From Saxidomus purpurata (Eukaryota; Mollusca; Bivalvia; Venerida; Veneridae): 64,000 nucleotides of DNA. Under the pieces are notes generated by a model, which saw nothing but the letters and a program-made list of their open reading frames with translations, did not search any database and was not told the origin of the DNA. The position numbers and the translations under genes were made by a program. The stretch covers positions 23,520,207 through 23,584,206 of the forward strand of contig JAFMSR010000013.1 in the NCBI GenBank assembly GCA_022818135.1, given 5' to 3'. Below are positions 14,153-20,730 of this stretch, piece after piece (positions within the stretch are counted from its first letter, which is position 1; each line of letters begins with the position of its first letter).

Positions 14153-14394
14153 AAAGACCTGGCCCTGTGCTTATATTAGTTTCTTGAGCACAATCTCGTG
14201 CTCAGCAGACAATAATGCTCAAGTAATACGAGGCAAAGTTATATTTACTTGCAAAGTCAGGTTTAATATAAAGATACATAACATTAAGAACAAACCTTCT
14301 GATTATTGTTATGGAACCTTACATTGTAAAAAGATATAACTTGACTTGATTTCATATTACTTGATCGTGATCTTGTGTTGAGCAGGAGATTGTG
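14153..14394. mobile_element. MITE, left part (interrupted by the Polinton)
   Basis: Left part of a miniature inverted-repeat element whose right end lies at 20731-20766. The left arm from 14153 (AAAGACCTGGCCCTGTGC, then TTTCTTGAGCACAATC) matches the reverse complement of the right arm (AAAGTACTGGTCCCGTGC, then TTTCTTGAACACAAT). The match continues across the integration point into this segment's 3' end, giving TIRs of roughly 60 bp. Without the Polinton and one TSD copy the element would be about 280 bp. No coding capacity; superfamily not determined. Confidence 0.75.
14389..14394. repeat. Target-site duplication, left copy
   Basis: ATTGTG immediately precedes the element terminus AGTAGTATAGGGG and is identical to 20725-20730. 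A 6-bp duplication is the hallmark of Maverick/Polinton integration by a retroviral-type integrase. Confidence 0.95.
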
Positions 14395-14403
14395 AGTAGT
14401 ATA

Positions 14404-14419
14404 GGGGCCGGTTGGCCCC
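14404..14419. repeat. Terminal hairpin of the left TIR
   Basis: GGGGCC-GGTT-GGCCCC can form a 6-bp GC stem with a 4-base loop, nine bases in from the element end. The right end has the same stem at 20699-20715 with a 5-base loop, the only length difference in the first ~30 bases. Confidence 0.8.
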
Positions 14420-14426
14420 AAACAAT

Positions 14427-14436
14427 GCGCATGCGC
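14427..14436. promoter_or_regulatory. Perfect NRF1-type palindrome, left TIR
   Basis: GCGCATGCGC matches the core of the animal NRF1 binding consensus. The same 10-mer lies at 20682-20691, mirrored 33-34 bases in from the right end. Factor binding is inferred from the motif only. Confidence 0.55.
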
Positions 14437-14570
14437 GGTGGCCATTTTGAATGACGTCACAGCGCGGCGGCCATGTTGAATGACGTCACAGCGCGGCGGC
14501 CATGTTGAATGACGTCACAGCGTGGCGGCCATGTTGAATGACGTCACAGCGTGGCGGCCATTTTGAATTT
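14437..14570 (+). repeat. Left subterminal array of 29-bp CRE/YY1-like units
   Basis: Four full 29-bp units plus a partial fifth. Each full unit has a GGCGGCCATGTTGAA-like half containing the YY1 core CCATNTT and a palindromic CRE, TGACGTCA, at 14452, 14481, 14510 and 14539. The spacing is exactly 29 bp. The first and last units have CCATTTT, the inner ones CCATGTT. The array probably acts as a promoter or enhancer, or as a binding platform for replication or transposition factors. Confidence 0.85.
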
Positions 14571-15779
14571 ATTTTTAGAATAACGTCAGAAGTTTATTGT
14601 TAAAATGACATTAGAGTTAAATTTTTAGAATGACCTTATGTACTATGTTAGAAAATTGTTCCCGGAAGTATGCAGAGCTGACTTGTATACTCGATCTAGG
14701 GCGTGATCGCGGACATTGAAGGTCAGGTCCTTGGCCCTAGACGGGGAGAATAGGTGATGAATTAAACAAAATATACAGTAAAAATAAGAGTAGATAATAC
14801 GTTGATATAACTAATGATATAGATCTTTTATTACGGATAAAAAATACTTTGGTTAATAATCAAATTTTAAGTACGAAAATTTACTTACGATGTTTCCTCC
14901 TCGGCGTTCACTGACAAAATGACTTCAATCATGAGTGTACAATCCCTTAATGCGCATGCTCGGACCCGTTTTTACAATGACTTCATAAGCTATATTTAGA
15001 TAAGGTCATGAGTGCATCAAACGTGATCAAACATGTCAATGTTAATCCCCTTAAAGTAGACACAAGGTTAGCGTTTGTTTATTTAAGAGCGGATACATTG
15101 ACAATGGCCTATTGAAATGTCAATGTTAATCCCCATTAAAGTGACCACAGTCATTAGCAAATACTTCTTTTTGTCGTAAATACTAAGGATTAAAAAAATT
15201 CATGGTAACGGATTAAAATTGTTCAATTTTGACGATTTTATAGCGAAATAACGTTATAAAGGCAAAACTTATAGAAACGAATATTTTGCGTTATAAAACT
15301 ATGTAGGCCCCAAGGATACTGTCTAAAGTAAAGATAGGTTCTGGAAAGTCTATGTTGACCGTTTTAATCCCGCAGCAGTTTTGATAAGTAACAGTAGACT
15401 TAATATTGACAAAACGGTTTTTCCCTTTTCGTGCCACAGTTTCTATTCATCAATATTGAGACGTTAATGTCATGTGATAGAATCCATAAAAAGCTTTCAT
15501 TTGCGTCCCCCATTCTCGTTTCAATTTTTAGCCGTTCTCGAGTTATGACGTAACAGCGATTTTTAAACTTTTTTCAAAACTCTCTTTTAAGCATGTAAAA
15601 TAGGTAGCTTTGGAAAGATCTCGTCGAGCAGATTCAGAAAATGTCTACTTTTACAGGTCTTTGATGGTTTTTGACGAAGATATCGGCGTTAAAAGATATT
15701 TGTGACGTCACCTTTTGGCGCTAAATTTGAATTTGACGACTAAAATTTTGAAAATACTATATCTTCCTTATTTATGAAC

Positions 15780-16020
15780 CGATTTAAATGATCTTGGTAT
15801 CAAATGAAAGCTCTGAACGTGTCCTTTTTACAATGACACTCGGACCGGAAGTGTAGTCAATCATGCGTAAAACTGGAGGTTTTATTCTTAATTTTGACCA
15901 CAAAAAGTTGTGTTTGGTATCATATGAAAGGCTTTAAAGAGTATTATTGACTTATAGTCTCAAAAAGAACTTGAGGTCACTCATGCGTAAAATACGTCAA
16001 AAAATATGCATACCCGATCA
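15780..16020 (+). repeat. 120-bp tandem pair inside the left TIR
   Basis: GGTATCAAATGAAAG at 15796 recurs as GGTATCATATGAAAG at 15916, and TCATGCGTAAAA at 15861 recurs at 15981. Both pairs are exactly 120 bp apart, so this is a diverged tandem duplication. The right TIR carries the same pair inverted, at about 19080-19320. Confidence 0.75.
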
Positions 16021-16189
16021 TCTTGCTATCCAAAATGGTAATGAACGAATACCCGATTGAAGTAACGATATAAAAGAGTAAAGTCAACTTTTTGATTGGT
16101 CAGTTTTAAAAATTTTGATTAGCTCACAGTCCTACATTTTGACAACAATAGTTGGCTAAGGAAGGAGACTACGCCTCCTTCTCTTTTGC

Positions 16190-16240
16190 AGCCGCCGACA
16201 CCCGCCGCCGTCCCTACCGCCGCCGCCACCGCCGCCGCCT
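16190..16240. repeat. (CCG)-rich trinucleotide tract at the inner left TIR edge
   Basis: An imperfect CCG/CCA triplet tract. The mirrored tract on the right (18802-18895) is nearly twice as long, so the tracts have changed length independently since the arms were made identical. The 64-residue minus-strand frame over this tract has no support. Confidence 0.85.
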
Positions 16241-16374
16241 CCATAAAAGGAGGAGGAGAAAAAAGGTAAGGTAGGGAATAGGACAGTATATAAATAGACA
16301 AAGAACTATACATAGCAGTTTACATTTTATTCACATAATAACCATGATTTAAAACAATGCTCTGACATATACGT
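16241..16374. other. 3' flank of the protease gene
   Basis: A short spacer between the left TIR and the protease stop codon. It contains an A/G-rich stretch, a plus-strand TATATAAATAG at about 16287 that looks like a TATA box facing into the genes antisense, and the minus-strand poly(A) signal described separately. Confidence 0.5.
16326..16331 (-). terminator. Poly(A) signal downstream of the protease
   Basis: AATAAA on the minus strand, 44 bases past the protease stop codon. This is the expected place for 3'-end formation of a transcript reading through the gene cluster. It supports eukaryotic transcription of the minus-strand genes, although the hexamer is common in AT-rich DNA. Confidence 0.5.
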
Positions 16375-16824
16375 TTAGTATCTGTTATGTCGGTGTCTTT
16401 TTTTAAGCAGTCTCATCATTTTAGACACAATTGAATGATCATTCCGCTTCTTTTGACGCGGATTGAATTCCTTTATAATGTCCTTCATGGTTTTCCCTCG
16501 AGATCTTTTGATGACATAATACGCACAATACAGTTCACAGACGTTAGACGTAGCTCGTTGTATTTGTCCAGAGTACATTAGATATTTCTTGGTGAGTATC
16601 TTTTCAAATCCTACGCCGTAGCTTTCCGGTCTGTTTCCTATTGAGTCAAAATATTCGTAAGGTCCACGCTTTGGGAAATAAAACGCCACCCAATGTTTAC
16701 CGGGTCCTTGGCTAGTGTCTGTGTTTGCAATAACAAATTGTCCTTTTTTAACTTTGACTTGATCAGAGGTACATACGGTTACTGGATATCCAAGGAGAAT
16801 AGCGGCCAGTTGATAATTGTTCAT
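16375..16824 (-). CDS. Adenain-like cysteine protease (Polinton PRO)
   Basis: 149 residues starting at ATG 16824. The adenovirus-protease/Ulp1-type catalytic pattern is in order: His44 in GKHWVAFYF, acidic Asp60 in EYFDSIG, Gln89 (oxyanion hole) and nucleophile Cys96 in NVCELYCAYY. The Gln-to-Cys spacing is 7, as in adenain. In relatives this enzyme matures virion proteins; here the capsid substrates are not encoded by the element. The C-terminus is strongly basic (KKRHRHNRY). Oddity: the residue after Cys96 is Glu, where the family nearly always has Gly, so activity should be tested rather than assumed. It is short for the family (adenain is about 200 residues) but the core is complete. It starts 3 bases after the upstream 131-residue gene ends, which suggests joint expression. 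It is the last gene before the left TIR. Confidence 0.9.
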   Translation of the reverse strand: MNNYQLAAILLGYPVTVCTSDQVKVKKGQFVIANTDTSQGPGKHWVAFYFPKRGPYEYFDSIGNRPESYGVGFEKILTKKYLMYSGQIQRATSNVCELYCAYYVIKRSRGKTMKDIIKEFNPRQKKRNDHSIVSKMMRLLKKRHRHNRY

Positions 16825-16827
16825 TGC

Positions 16828-17223
16828 TTAATATTTGTACTTGCTCCAGTCGATAATCTGTTTGTTTTCTGTAGGAAATTTCTTACGCTGTTGTTTAGCC
16901 GCATTATAACCGCTTTCCGCATCAGTGCCTTCATAATATGACGAATTTTTCTTTTGTAGACGTTTTACCTCGGACTGTGCGATTGCTACTGCTTGGGCAA
17001 CTGGGGTCACTAAATTTACAATGGGTTTTTCCTGCTGTTGCTGAGCTTCCATTTCTTTTAGTTTTCTGTATTTATTACCACTACCCACGAAATATCGTCC
17101 CATATGATCCGCTGTTACGTAACCGTCTTTTAAATCTTTAAGATGCTGATACCATTTCTCCGGGTCCGGTACATAGGGTACCCATTTTTGCTGTTTATTA
17201 TCGTACACTTCTATGGAACCCAT
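16828..17223 (-). CDS. Unknown 131-residue Polinton accessory protein
   Basis: Starts at ATG 17223 and stops 3 bases before the protease start. I do not recognise a named family with certainty. Residues 1-50 look like a compact domain with spaced aromatics: EVYD at 5-8, Trp14, PDPEKW at 19-24, Tyr25, DGY at 33-35, and a GRYFVGSG block at 42-49. A charged Lys/Glu/Gln helix-like stretch follows at 50-66 (four Gln at 61-64), then a small hydrophobic segment at about 67-86 (VTPVAQAVAIAQ), and a Lys/Tyr-rich basic tail. There is no signal peptide or clear membrane segment. Its place between ATPase and protease in a virus-like element suggests a virion or assembly protein, such as one of the small unassigned Polinton proteins. 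That role is inferred from context only. Confidence 0.8.
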   Translation of the reverse strand: MGSIEVYDNKQQKWVPYVPDPEKWYQHLKDLKDGYVTADHMGRYFVGSGNKYRKLKEMEAQQQQEKPIVNLVTPVAQAVAIAQSEVKRLQKKNSSYYEGTDAESGYNAAKQQRKKFPTENKQIIDWSKYKY

Positions 17224-17268
17224 ATTTGCGTTTTGAAAGTTAAGGAACGTCGATCCTTCTTACCATGT

Positions 17269-17439
17269 TTATTCACCATCCGATTCATGATCGTTATCAC
17301 CTTCATTGTTATCCGCTGTTGGATACTCTTCCTTGTTTTCATGATTGGGCCATAATTTATTAAACAGGTCTTTTCTTAGTTTAACGGCTTGTCGAATAGA
17401 TTCTGTGACACTCATGTCATGTTGATGTTTTAGTTTCAT
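17269..17439 (-). CDS. Short 56-residue ORF, possibly the tail of a broken gene
   Basis: ATG at 17439, stop at 17271-17269. The product begins with a basic helix-like half (SIRQAVKLRKDLFNKLW at about 14-30) and ends in a very acidic tail (EGDNDHESDGE). A second in-frame ATG is at residue 9. It overlaps, in another frame, a 41-codon open stretch (17542-17417) whose composition also looks protein-like (LRKKLRQNYARFLIDFCELQ). The two may be pieces of one gene separated by a frameshift, or this short frame may be the gene itself. No family recognised. Confidence 0.35.
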   Translation of the reverse strand: MKLKHQHDMSVTESIRQAVKLRKDLFNKLWPNHENKEEYPTADNNEGDNDHESDGE

Positions 17440-17546
17440 AGACGACTGAAGAATCGTTGCTTAGGATCGTCTGCAACTCGCAAAAATCAATCAAAAATCG
17501 GGCATAATTTTGTCTCAGTTTCTTTCTTAATTGAGGCAATCTTCAT
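17417..17546 (-). pseudogene. Open stretch without its own start, overlapping the 56-residue ORF
   Basis: Between the ATPase stop (17588) and the 56-residue ORF, an ATG at 17546 opens a frame of only 19 codons. The neighbouring frame stays open from 17542 to 17417 without a good start. Two small indels would be needed to join these frames to the ORF downstream. This is compatible with a decayed small gene; sequencing error or chance are also possible. Confidence 0.3.
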
Positions 17547-17587
17547 TAGCAGTGCGATGATAAGCTTCTGGAAAGTTTGTCCTTCAT

Positions 17588-18694
17588 CTATATAGCGTTG
17601 ACTTTAGCTTTAAACTGCTCCATATGTGATTGTCTGAGCGGTTCCTGAAAACGCTTATCCCAAATGTCACTACGTGTGCGCTCTTCTTTGAGGTCCTCTT
17701 TTATACGTTTACCTGGAGGTTCCGTGAACAAAGGTCGATTCGCTAGAGAGAGACTGTTATTACTTTCATTCATTGAATTCATATCATCATAATCATCATC
17801 ATCATCACCACCATTATCATCATACTCACTATCATCACTATCACTACCATCACTATCCTTTATTTCATTCCTGGCAGACCAGTTTTCTTTGCCACTAAAG
17901 TAGTTTTCTGGTTTAAATTCACTCTCTGTTAGTTTTCTCTTTTTCGGATTGTTTCCGTCAAAAATGTTATCGCGTAAACTGTCTTGTTCTGGTGTGCTTG
18001 ATTTCAGGTCTATTACCAAATAACCATGTGGACTTGTTGTCGCTTGTTCAAACCGTTTCATAAAAATGTTACTGGACGAGGGGTAAATTCGTCTTGCCAA
18101 TGTTGCTACTTGCTGTCTGTCAATAGGATTATTAAACAACACCAGATACTGCGTATTTAAAGCGATATCTCTGCAGGCCTTTCCTTGAGGAAACAAATTT
18201 TGATTGAGATATACGATAGATATGTTTCTGTGGTGACTGCCCTTGGTAAATAGATCGGCAATTCTTGGATCGCATTTAGCTTCGGCCATCAAATCGTCAA
18301 AAACCAAAAGGTTCCTTTTACTGATGTTAATGTACTCTGAACTGTTTAAGTGATCAGGGATACCCTGCACAAATTCGATCCCGGGTATTTTACGCTGAAG
18401 TTCATCGTACAGAGGTTGCCATTGCCCAAAACACCATATGATACGTTTAGGTAGAGGATGTACGAGATTTGAAAAGAGTAGTTTTCTGGTCCATTCAGTT
18501 TTTCCACTACCGCTAGGTCCTGAAACGACCATAGAAAACGGATGTTGAAATGTCATCTTGCTTGAAGTTTTCGATATTTCCAATGATGATGAGTAACCCC
18601 CATCGTCTTTGTCACTCCCATGTAAATTACGTTGATGTCTCAGCATAACGTCACGCCTAGAGAATGACTGTTGACAAATAGGACACTGTTTCAT
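17588..18694 (-). CDS. A32/FtsK-like packaging ATPase with N-terminal C2H2 zinc finger
   Basis: 368 residues from ATG 18694. The frame is open a little further upstream but only through TTG and other non-ATG codons, so the ATG just before the zinc finger is chosen. Order: C2H2 finger (Cys4, Cys7, His20, His25); linker; Walker A GPSGSGKT at 59-66; Walker B NLLVFDDLM with LLVFDD at 129-134; a conserved polar YLNQNLF strand at about 162-168; and an arginine-rich NPIDRQQVATLARR stretch at about 189-202. A low-complexity Asp/Ser-rich segment spans about 283-310, followed by a basic-acidic tail. The family pumps DNA into capsids in Polintons, virophages and large DNA viruses. Here no capsid gene accompanies it. 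It is the first gene of the minus-strand cluster, 41 bases upstream of the small broken gene. The reading frame is intact. Confidence 0.93.
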   Translation of the reverse strand: MKQCPICQQSFSRRDVMLRHQRNLHGSDKDDGGYSSSLEISKTSSKMTFQHPFSMVVSGPSGSGKTEWTRKLLFSNLVHPLPKRIIWCFGQWQPLYDELQRKIPGIEFVQGIPDHLNSSEYINISKRNLLVFDDLMAEAKCDPRIADLFTKGSHHRNISIVYLNQNLFPQGKACRDIALNTQYLVLFNNPIDRQQVATLARRIYPSSSNIFMKRFEQATTSPHGYLVIDLKSSTPEQDSLRDNIFDGNNPKKRKLTESEFKPENYFSGKENWSARNEIKDSDGSDSDDSEYDDNGGDDDDDYDDMNSMNESNNSLSLANRPLFTEPPGKRIKEDLKEERTRSDIWDKRFQEPLRQSHMEQFKAKVNAI

Positions 18695-18801
18695 TGGTTC
18701 TCGAAATGCAAACAAGCTTGTTATGATAAAAAGAGACTGATAGGTTCTTACATTATGTTTGTCATTCTTACGCTTTTAACTAAAACTTGTCGCAGAAAAA
18801 A
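18695..18801. other. 5' flank of the ATPase gene
   Basis: About 100 bases between the ATPase start and the right TIR. On the minus strand it holds an upstream short frame (ATGACAAACATAATGTAA). No TATA box is visible, so the promoter probably lies in the TIR. Confidence 0.4.
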
Positions 18802-18806
18802 CGGCG

Positions 18807-18840
<34 letters not shown>

Positions 18841-18895
18841 CGGCGGCGGCCTAGGGCGGCGGCGGTAGGGGCGGCGGCGGGGGTGGCGGCGGCTG
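18802..18895. repeat. (GGC)-rich trinucleotide tract at the inner right TIR edge
   Basis: An imperfect GGC/GGT triplet tract of about 94 bases, interrupted by CTAGGG and TAGGGG. It is longer than its counterpart at 16190-16240. The poly-glycine plus-strand frame across it is an artefact of the repeat. Confidence 0.9.
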
Positions 18896-20521
18896 CAAAA
18901 GAGAAGGAGGCGTGGTCTCCTTCCTTAGCCAACTATTGTTGTCAAAATGTAGGACTGTGAGCTAATCAAAATTTTTAAAACTGACCAATCAAAAAGTTGA
19001 CTTTACTCTTTTATATCGTTACTTCAATCGGGTATTCGTTCATTACCATTTTGGATAGCAAGATGATCGGGTATGCATATTTTTTGACGTATTTCACGCA
19101 TGAGTGACCTCAAGTTTTTTTTGAGACTATAAGTCAATAATACTCTTTAAAGCCTTTCATATGATACCAAACACAACTTTTTGTGGTCAAAATTAAGAAT
19201 AAAACCTCCAGTTTTACGCATGATTGACTACACTTCCGGTCCGAGTGTCATTGTAAAAAGGACACGTTCAGAGCTTTCATTTGATACCAAGATCATTTAA
19301 ATCGGTTCATAAATAAGGAAGATATAGTATTTTCAAAATTTTAGTCGTCAAATTCAAATTTAGCGCCAAAAGGTGACGTCACAAATATCTTTTAACGCCG
19401 ATATCTTCGTCAAAAACCATCAAAGACCTGTAAAAGTAGACATTTTCTGAATCTGCTCGACGAGATCTTTCCAAAGGTACCTATTTTACATGCTTAAAAG
19501 AGAGTTTTGAAAAAAGTTTAAAAATCGCTGTTACGTCATAACTCGAGAACGGCTAAAAATTGAAACGAGAATGGGGGACGCAAATGAAAGCTTTTAATTG
19601 GATTCTATCACATGACATTAACGTCTCAATATTGATGAATAGAAACTGTGGCACGAAAAGGGAAAAACCGTTTTGTCAATATTAAGTCTACTGTTACTTA
19701 TCAAAACTGCTGCGGGATTTCTTAAAACGGTCAACATAGACTTTCCAGAACCTATCTTTACTTTAGACAGTATCCTTGGGGCCTACATAGTTTTATAACG
19801 CAAAATATTCGTTTCTATAAGTTTTGCCTTTATAACGTTATTTCGCTATAAAATCGTCAAAATTGAACAATTTTAATCCGTTACCATGAATTTTTTTAAT
19901 CCTTAGTATTCACGACAAAAAGAAGTATTTGCTAATGACTGTGGTCACTTTAATGGGGATTAACATTGACATTTCAATAGGCCATTGTCAATGTATCCGC
20001 TCTTAAATAAACAAACGCTAACCTTGTGTCTACTTTAAGGGGATTAACATTGACATGTTTGATCACGTTTGATGTACTCATGACCTTATCTAAATATAGC
20101 TTATGAAGTCATTGTAAAAACGGGTCCGAGCATGCGCATTAAGGGATTGTACACTCATGATTGAAGTCATTTTGTCAGTGAACGCCGAGGAGGAAACATC
20201 GTAAGTAAATTTTCGTACTTAAAATTTGATTATTAACCAAAGTATTTTTTATCCGTAATAAAAGATCTATATCATTAGTTATATCAACGTATTATCTACT
20301 CTTATTTTTACTGTATATTTTGTTTAATTCATCACCTATTCTCCCCGTCTAGGGCCAAGGACCTGACCTTCAATGTCCGCGATCACGCCCTAGATCGAGT
20401 ATACAAGTCAGCTCTGTATACTTCCGGGAACAATTTTCTAACATAGTACATAAGGTCATTCTAAAAATTTAACTCTAATGTCATTTTAACAATAAACTTC
20501 TGACGTTATTCTAAAAATAAA

Positions 20522-20681
20522 TTCAAAATGGCCGCCGCGCTGTGACGTCATTCAACATGGCCGCCGCGCTGTGACGTCATTCAACATGGCCGCCGCGCTG
20601 TGACGTCATTCAACATGGCCGCCGCGCTGTGACGTCATTCAACATGGCCATCGCGCTGTGACGTCATTCAAAATGGCCACC
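20522..20681 (-). repeat. Right subterminal array of 29-bp CRE/YY1-like units
   Basis: Five full units with TGACGTCA at 20543, 20572, 20601, 20630 and 20659, one more than the left arm. The GGCCGCC part is changed to GGCCATC and GGCCACC in the two outermost units. Confidence 0.85.
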
Positions 20682-20691
20682 GCGCATGCGC
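20682..20691. promoter_or_regulatory. Perfect NRF1-type palindrome, right TIR
   Basis: GCGCATGCGC, the mirror of 14427-14436, placed between the 29-bp array and the terminal hairpin. Confidence 0.55.
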
Positions 20692-20698
20692 ATTGTTT

Positions 20699-20715
20699 GG
20701 GGCCAAACCGGCCCC
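20699..20715. repeat. Terminal hairpin of the right TIR
   Basis: GGGGCC-AAACC-GGCCCC, the same stem as at the left end with a loop one base longer. Confidence 0.8.
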
Positions 20716-20724
20716 TATACTACT

Positions 20725-20730
20725 ATTGTG
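20725..20730. repeat. Target-site duplication, right copy
   Basis: ATTGTG directly follows the terminal CTATACTACT and is identical to 14389-14394. Confidence 0.95.

What the first reader, a model, noticed from the sequence alone, without database searches (positions are those of the whole stretch)
14395..20724. A 6.3-kb satellite-like Polinton that keeps only packaging and maturation genes
The ends (5'-AG…CT-3', 6-bp ATTGTG duplication, long TIRs) prove a complete Maverick/Polinton integration. The 2.55-kb core encodes an ATPase, a 131-residue unknown and a protease, but no polymerase B, integrase or capsid protein. Non-autonomous elements normally lose all genes; one that keeps intact virion-assembly enzymes while losing replication, integration and capsid genes is unusual. 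Hypothesis: it is mobilised by an autonomous Polinton/adintovirus and uses its own ATPase and protease to bias packaging towards itself.
Basis: partly seen in the sequence, partly recalled or inferred. Interest (0 to 1): 0.87.

Follow-up and report, generated by a model that had tools for sequence, protein, structure and literature searches.

The report
Satellite Polinton keeping its packaging motor
This animal genome carries a many-copy family of small virus-derived transposons that lack capsid, polymerase and integrase genes, keep a packaging-motor gene with an added zinc finger, and in part share their ends with complete virus-like Polintons in the same genome, which makes them look like satellites of those viruses.

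Summary
The 6,330-bp element is real: 1.8-kb inverted repeats, ATTGTG duplication, and genes for an A32/FtsK-type packaging ATPase, a 131-residue protein (p131) and an adenain-like protease. The window copy is not intact: its ATPase C-terminal part is broken. It is not a one-off. The same genome has 22 loci with p131 of this type, 20 with the protease directly behind it. Seven such elements and two ATPase-only relatives have perfect, different 6-bp duplications. None of 31 hits of this zinc-finger ATPase lies within 20 kb of a scored Polinton polymerase, against 34 of 68 for other Polinton ATPases. Codon variants shared between copies show purifying selection (0.50 of neutral, no stops); private ones look neutral. 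Four small elements carry at both ends, at 99-100% identity, the 276-bp inverted repeat of 16-18-kb Polintons with polymerase, integrase and capsid-like genes and a finger-less ATPase. Those have the capsid-like gene between p131 and protease, where the small elements have none. Best reading: satellites moved and packaged by full Polintons, their own ATPase biasing packaging. That last step is inferred; other genomes' gene content is unknown, and a p131 tree does not unite the lineage.

The parts
14389..14394 (.). left copy of the 6-bp target duplication ATTGTG
20725..20730 (.). right copy of the 6-bp target duplication ATTGTG
14395..16203 (+). left inverted repeat (inner edge approximate)
18881..20724 (-). 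right inverted repeat (inner edge approximate)
14433..14568 (.). 29-bp tandem repeats in the left repeat tip, 4.7 copies
20521..20685 (.). 29-bp tandem repeats in the right repeat tip, 5.7 copies
17588..18715 (-). packaging ATPase, open part (375 aa from TTG; relatives align from 18694)
18620..18688 (-). C2H2 zinc finger at the start of the ATPase (residues 10-32; Pfam match below cut-off, modelled with high local confidence)
17275..17587 (-). remnant of the ATPase C-terminal part, out of frame
16828..17223 (-). 131-residue protein (p131), possible substrate of the protease
16375..16824 (-). adenain-like cysteine protease, 149 aa

Best explanation
The element belongs to a multi-copy satellite family of Polintons in an animal genome (a bivalve, by inference). 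Shown: members have Polinton-type termini and 6-bp duplications; they carry a zinc-finger packaging ATPase, p131 and an adenain-like protease (or, in a related subfamily, the ATPase alone); shared variants show purifying selection; some carry the whole 276-bp inverted repeat of full-length Polintons that have polymerase, integrase and capsid-like genes. Inferred: full Polintons replicate and integrate the satellites in trans through the common termini and supply the capsid; the satellite's own ATPase, perhaps aimed by its zinc finger at satellite repeats, draws capsids to satellite DNA; p131 is a small virion or core protein cut by the protease. The window copy landed recently, unless its repeats were homogenised, and its ATPase is now broken.
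For: 22 loci with p131 of this type, 20 of 22 with the protease within about 11 bp once partial alignments are allowed for. Perfect 6-bp duplications, all different, in 8 of 22 loci with this ATPase scanned (window, L009-L028, L038), plus L043. 0 of 31 zinc-finger ATPase hits near a scored polymerase against 34 of 68 others. 276-bp repeat at 99-100% identity at both ends of small elements on C12, C79, C2678, C8 and of Polintons on C2 and C2738. Shared codon variants 0.50 of neutral, P 1e-4, no stops; private ones 0.85, P 0.16, 20 stops. A complete 4.2-kb element with the ATPase as its only recognised gene.
Against: The window ATPase is broken and only 3 of 20 window-type loci have all three frames open. 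The window subfamily's own helper was not found: 0 of 49 entered tips near a scored polymerase. The polymerase search scored 85 of 247 candidates, so absence is a lower bound. In a p131 tree, proteins inferred to sit beside zinc-finger ATPases in other genomes do not form one clade, and one groups near a full-Polinton p131. Some young copy pairs show no constraint: L009-L011 ATPase 15 N to 2 S. No virion, expression or binding data.
Confidence: 0.55

Rival explanations
1. Deletion derivatives of a Polinton lineage that natively has a zinc-finger ATPase beside p131. The derivatives spread through their termini and the genes are passengers, their apparent constraint inherited from the parent.
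For: p131 of inferred zinc-finger contigs in other genomes is scattered among Polinton-type p131. Most copies are decayed. Repeat-only relatives without genes also spread (L030, L031).
Against: No full-length parent with this ATPase was seen in this genome: 0 of 31 hits near a scored polymerase. Shared variants within the family itself show constraint, and 20 of 22 loci keep the same p131-protease junction. The ATPase-only subfamily keeps that gene open.
Confidence: 0.22
2. An interfering element kept because its ATPase or protease disturbs full Polintons and so protects the host, as proposed for integrated virophages.
For: Incomplete sets of virion-assembly proteins can act as inhibitors (general knowledge, not tested here). 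Constraint on all three genes taken together.
Against: Copies move and decay after landing, with private variants near neutral, which suggests selection during spread and not at a fixed host locus.
Confidence: 0.1
3. The second segment of a two-part Polinton whose parts move together.
For: Shared 276-bp repeat; constraint.
Against: The full-length Polinton read here has its own open ATPase, p131 and protease frames, so the small element supplies nothing obviously missing.
Confidence: 0.05

Closest known systems
Polintons/Mavericks (polintoviruses; adintoviruses in animals)
   Same: inverted termini starting AG, 6-bp duplications, packaging ATPase, adenain-like protease; a full-length member in this genome shares its repeat with four small elements
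   Different: no polymerase, integrase or capsid genes; 4-9 kb and not 15-20 kb; ATPase with zinc finger and C-terminal extension
Non-autonomous transposons with a helper's termini (MITE-like)
   Same: movable only with enzymes supplied in trans; repeat-only relatives occur in this genome
   Different: keep protein genes whose shared variants show constraint
Phage satellites that redirect packaging (PICIs; known to me from memory and search listings only)
   Same: proposed: own packaging component turned on a helper's capsids
   Different: bacterial, other protein families; packaging of the present element is not shown
Virophages
   Same: small relatives of Polintons that depend on another virus (passage in PMC4028283)
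   Different: virophages encode their own capsid proteins; these elements show none

Membership tests
Polinton/Maverick | inverted repeats with AG termini and 6-bp target duplication | tested here: met
Polinton/Maverick | protein-primed polymerase B and rve integrase | tested here: not met
   no match in the window element; no scored polymerase within 20 kb of 31 zinc-finger ATPase hits
Polinton/Maverick | major and minor capsid genes | tested here: not met
   no match to the capsid-like or penton-like protein of L029 in the window element or 22 fetched satellite loci; the queries are named capsid-like from position, size and recalled motifs
Polinton/Maverick | packaging ATPase and adenain-like protease | tested here: met
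   the ATPase of the window copy is broken
Non-autonomous Polinton | termini shared with an autonomous Polinton of the same genome | tested here: inconclusive
   met for four family members over 276 bp at 99-100%; for the window element only the outer 22 bp match the Polinton read
Satellite that redirects packaging (PICI-like) | own packaging component under selection | tested here: inconclusive
   constraint on shared variants; packaging function inferred from family alone
Satellite that redirects packaging (PICI-like) | packaged in helper particles and dependent on the helper | not testable with these tools
   needs particle DNA or infection data

The most novel reading that the evidence does not exclude
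An animal counterpart of phage satellites: a lineage of Polinton parasites whose core selfish gene is a sequence-aimed packaging motor. A zinc finger fused to the ATPase would select the satellite's own DNA for loading into capsids made by full Polintons, and the smallest members would consist of this single gene between Polinton ends.
Probability: 0.35. Interest if true: 0.92.

Novelty: new variant of a known kind. Interest (0 to 1): 0.8.

Why it matters
Particles of Polintons/Mavericks have been inferred from gene content without being observed (abstract of PMC8097293, in the listing). Capsid-less elements that keep packaging genes under selection would be hard to explain unless Polintons do form particles in animals, so such satellites are indirect evidence for virions and say what DNA to look for in them. 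They would also extend satellite redirection of packaging beyond bacteria and suggest a zinc-finger-aimed motor as the means.

Tried and rejected
One-off deletion or assembly collapse: rejected, since several loci with the same structure have different perfect duplications. Capsid gene hidden between p131 and protease: rejected, the gap is about 2-11 bp in 20 of 22 loci. ATPase inherited from the helper: rejected for the Polinton read, whose ATPase is a finger-less 37% relative. Scans of IMG/VR with p131, ATPase and capsid-like protein and of prokaryote genomes with p131 and ATPase confirmed no relative; phage records gave no match to the capsid-like protein. p131 by fold: model of low confidence (pLDDT 68.6), no viral-library match with E of 0.001 or better. 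ATPase model: mean pLDDT 64.9, not searched further. Capsid-like protein against PDB and Pfam: nothing useful; its fold was not modelled, as the structure tool's list of allowed sources does not name loci taken from whole genomes. One trio lineage across species by p131 tree: not supported. Gene neighbourhood in other genomes: inferred only from equal contig lengths in the three hit tables (4, 6 and 3 shared lengths, among the listed 120, 120 and 69 proteins); those contigs could not be fetched. Host: 'bivalve' rests on about 19 long contigs seen in the coordinates, recalled as common in some clams, and on relatives labelled Pinctada and Candidatus Thiodiazotropha. Rfam on the window: no match.
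Full report
WHAT IS THERE. The element spans 14395-20724 (6,330 bp) with ATTGTG on both sides. Its inverted repeats are about 1.8 kb with 9 substitutions and a few indels between them; if not homogenised, the insertion is young. Between them lie three minus-strand frames: an ATPase with Pox_A32 and Adeno_IVa2 matches above the Pfam cut-offs and a C2H2 finger at its start (below cut-off), a 131-residue protein (p131) without a Pfam match, and a protease with a sub-threshold Peptidase_C5 match that also matches the S273R cysteine protease structure over 43 residues (E 2.6e-5). The ATPase is broken here: relatives run about 100 residues further, and that part lies behind an in-frame stop and partly in another frame.

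NOT A ONE-OFF. The window lies in an unnamed 1.135-Gb genome. The outer 606 bp of its repeat match 51 places, with 40 of 132 candidates scored; read by eye, many are inverted pairs 0.7-8.7 kb apart. p131 (92 of 92 candidates scored) gives 52 matches, 22 loci of them at 83-100% identity. I fetched 20 stretches and others later. Of 22 loci with this ATPase scanned for tips (window, L009-L028, L038), 8 have perfect 6-bp duplications, all different; one (L018) has 5 of 6; for 13 no matching pair was found, in some because the stretch or contig holds one end only. L043 adds a further perfect one. In 3 of 20 window-type loci (window, L009-L027) all three frames are open; the others are broken or incomplete somewhere.

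A DIFFERENT GENE SET FROM FULL POLINTONS. The ATPase search (109 of 981 candidates scored) gives hits at 59-100% identity, the zinc-finger class, and hits at 37-47%, mostly finger-less and often about 235 residues. Polymerase B (PF03175, 85 of 247 candidates scored) lies within 20 kb of 0 of 31 hits of the first set and 34 of 68 of the second. Two of the 31 are at one locus; the 68 include three old decayed relatives of the first class (C13:11.2 Mb, its near-copy on C70, and C4:4.97 Mb), which have p131 beside the ATPase and no protease match. In window-type loci p131 and protease are about 2-11 bp apart in 20 of 22, allowing for alignments that begin inside the protease; one (C5) has an insertion, one (C6:40.9 Mb) has no protease match. 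In 14 loci of the lower-identity type (42-70%) with both genes, the gap is 1,278-1,459 bp in 12; the exceptions are 869 and 11,743 bp. By eye, 7 of these 14 have a scored polymerase within 10 kb. Four such gaps were read (L029, L035, L036, L037): each holds a relative of a 416-residue protein, open in L029 and L037, interrupted in L035 and shorter in L036, and beyond p131 a penton-like frame of 140-148 residues. I call the first capsid-like from place, size and a recalled motif; Pfam and PDB searches found nothing useful. Neither of these, nor the polymerase piece, has a match in the window element or 22 fetched satellite loci; the integrase matches a 61-residue N-terminal relic in both repeats of L028 and a 33-40% stretch in L017, outside its inverted repeat.

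A PUTATIVE HELPER. One full-length Polinton runs from C2:43210655 to 43227066 (16.4 kb) with CATACA on both sides. Pieces read: ATPase without finger, p131, capsid-like, penton-like and protease genes (L029); integrase with chromodomain, a BIR-domain and a PC4-domain protein (L039); polymerase. Its 276-bp inverted repeat is found at 99-100% identity (40 of 56 candidates scored) at both ends of small elements on C12 (L009), C79 (L010), C2678 (L019) and C8 (L038), at both ends of an 18-kb Polinton on C2738 with another duplication (TTGGTT), and at one end of a Polinton at C1:66.1 Mb. An 89-94% version of part of the tip occurs both near polymerase-type loci and near small elements. The window subfamily shares only about the outer 22 bp with this Polinton, and 0 of 49 window-type tips entered are near a scored polymerase; its helper is not identified.

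SELECTION. Pairwise dN/dS among window-type copies averages 0.50 (ATPase, 18 copies; 0.39-0.65), 0.45 (p131, 17; 0.27-0.79) and 0.41 (protease, 15; 0.27-0.58) (bootstrap over codons with 30 random pairs each time). Against: L009-L011 ATPase 15 N to 2 S, window-L009 ATPase 1.2 and window-L025 1.5, the last two inflated by the broken region. Splitting single-step codon variants: in one copy only, 248 N and 112 S, 0.85 of neutral, P 0.16, plus 20 stops; shared by two or more copies, 80 N and 61 S, 0.50 of neutral, P 1e-4, no stops; difference P 0.012 (transitions weighted 4 to 1 by assumption; 61 multi-step variants left out). This fits selection while spreading and neutral decay after landing. 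It is not a tree-based test. Taken singly, p131 and protease have few shared variants (12 N and 8 S; 13 N and 10 S).

THE ATPASE AS CORE GENE. A related subfamily carries the zinc-finger ATPase without recognisable p131 or protease: L043 holds a complete 4,214-bp element (TTTAAC duplication) with this one recognised gene, and L028 a 9.5-kb palindromic element with two copies, one running into a proline run; a faint p131-like stretch in L028 (E 0.07) may be a relic. Zinc-finger matches occur in 19 of the 26 aligned ATPases, the window's included; several of the others begin later.

p131. It has 154 relatives, 120 listed. A pattern recalled as the adenain cleavage consensus, (M/I/L)xGxG or (M/I/L)xGG, occurs in 70 of 120, against at most 15 in 200 shuffles; the conserved site reads IVGSG in 44 and VVGSG in 45. 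The window has FVGSG, outside the strict pattern. That p131 is a protease substrate is a guess.

MECHANISM. Shown: anatomy, copy number, shared termini for part of the family, missing genes, constraint. Inferred: replication and integration in trans by Polinton enzymes acting on common ends; capsids from the helper; own ATPase, aimed by its finger, loading satellite DNA. The last step is the least secure.

LITERATURE. Passages of PMC4028283: Polintons are 15-20 kb; ATPase and protease identifiable in 83% and 74%; capsid and penton genes. Passages of PMC8097293: 96% of vertebrate Maverick copies defective, size about 17 kb with about 10% variation. Passages of PMC11071296: zinc-finger genes in some adinto- and adomaviruses and a packaging ATPase in one from a clam dataset; no fusion of the two is mentioned in what I saw. 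Passages of PMC6431247 and PMC10045372 gave nothing on gene-bearing small Polintons. In the listings I saw no title or abstract start describing such satellites; one search listed phage satellites. Only open-licence papers were searched, and no repeat database.

VERDICT. Real, multi-copy and unusual. The satellite reading is well supported in structure and fairly in selection; biased packaging is a hypothesis with clear tests.

Noticed in passing
window 14421-14568 and 20521-20700: Each 29-bp unit in the repeat tips holds TGACGTCA and an ATGGCCGCC-like stretch, with TGCGCATGCGC outside them; these resemble CRE/ATF, YY1 and NRF1 sites (names recalled), possibly a promoter or replication switch.
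   Followed up: no
L043:3681-7894: Complete 4.2-kb element with TTTAAC duplication whose only recognised gene is the zinc-finger ATPase.
   Followed up: partly
L028:319-9839: Palindromic 9.5-kb element with two zinc-finger ATPase copies, one running into a long proline run, and a 61-residue integrase relic in both repeats; the homopolymer-like run may be an assembly fault.
   Followed up: partly
L039:1775-2302 and 2475-2831: The full Polinton encodes a BIR (inhibitor of apoptosis) domain protein and a PC4-like protein.
   Followed up: no
L030, L031: Elements with window-type repeats but none of the three genes, as in ordinary non-autonomous derivatives.
   Followed up: partly
L033, L034: Old decayed relatives (ATPase 41-48%) with p131 beside the ATPase and no protease match, hinting that the ATPase-p131 pairing is old.
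   Followed up: partly
P0137: A 60% ATPase relative is annotated in a Candidatus Thiodiazotropha assembly; probably host DNA in a symbiont bin.
   Followed up: no
window 16191-16239 and 18802-18893: CGG/GCC-rich runs at both inner edges of the inverted repeats, flanking the gene core.
   Followed up: no
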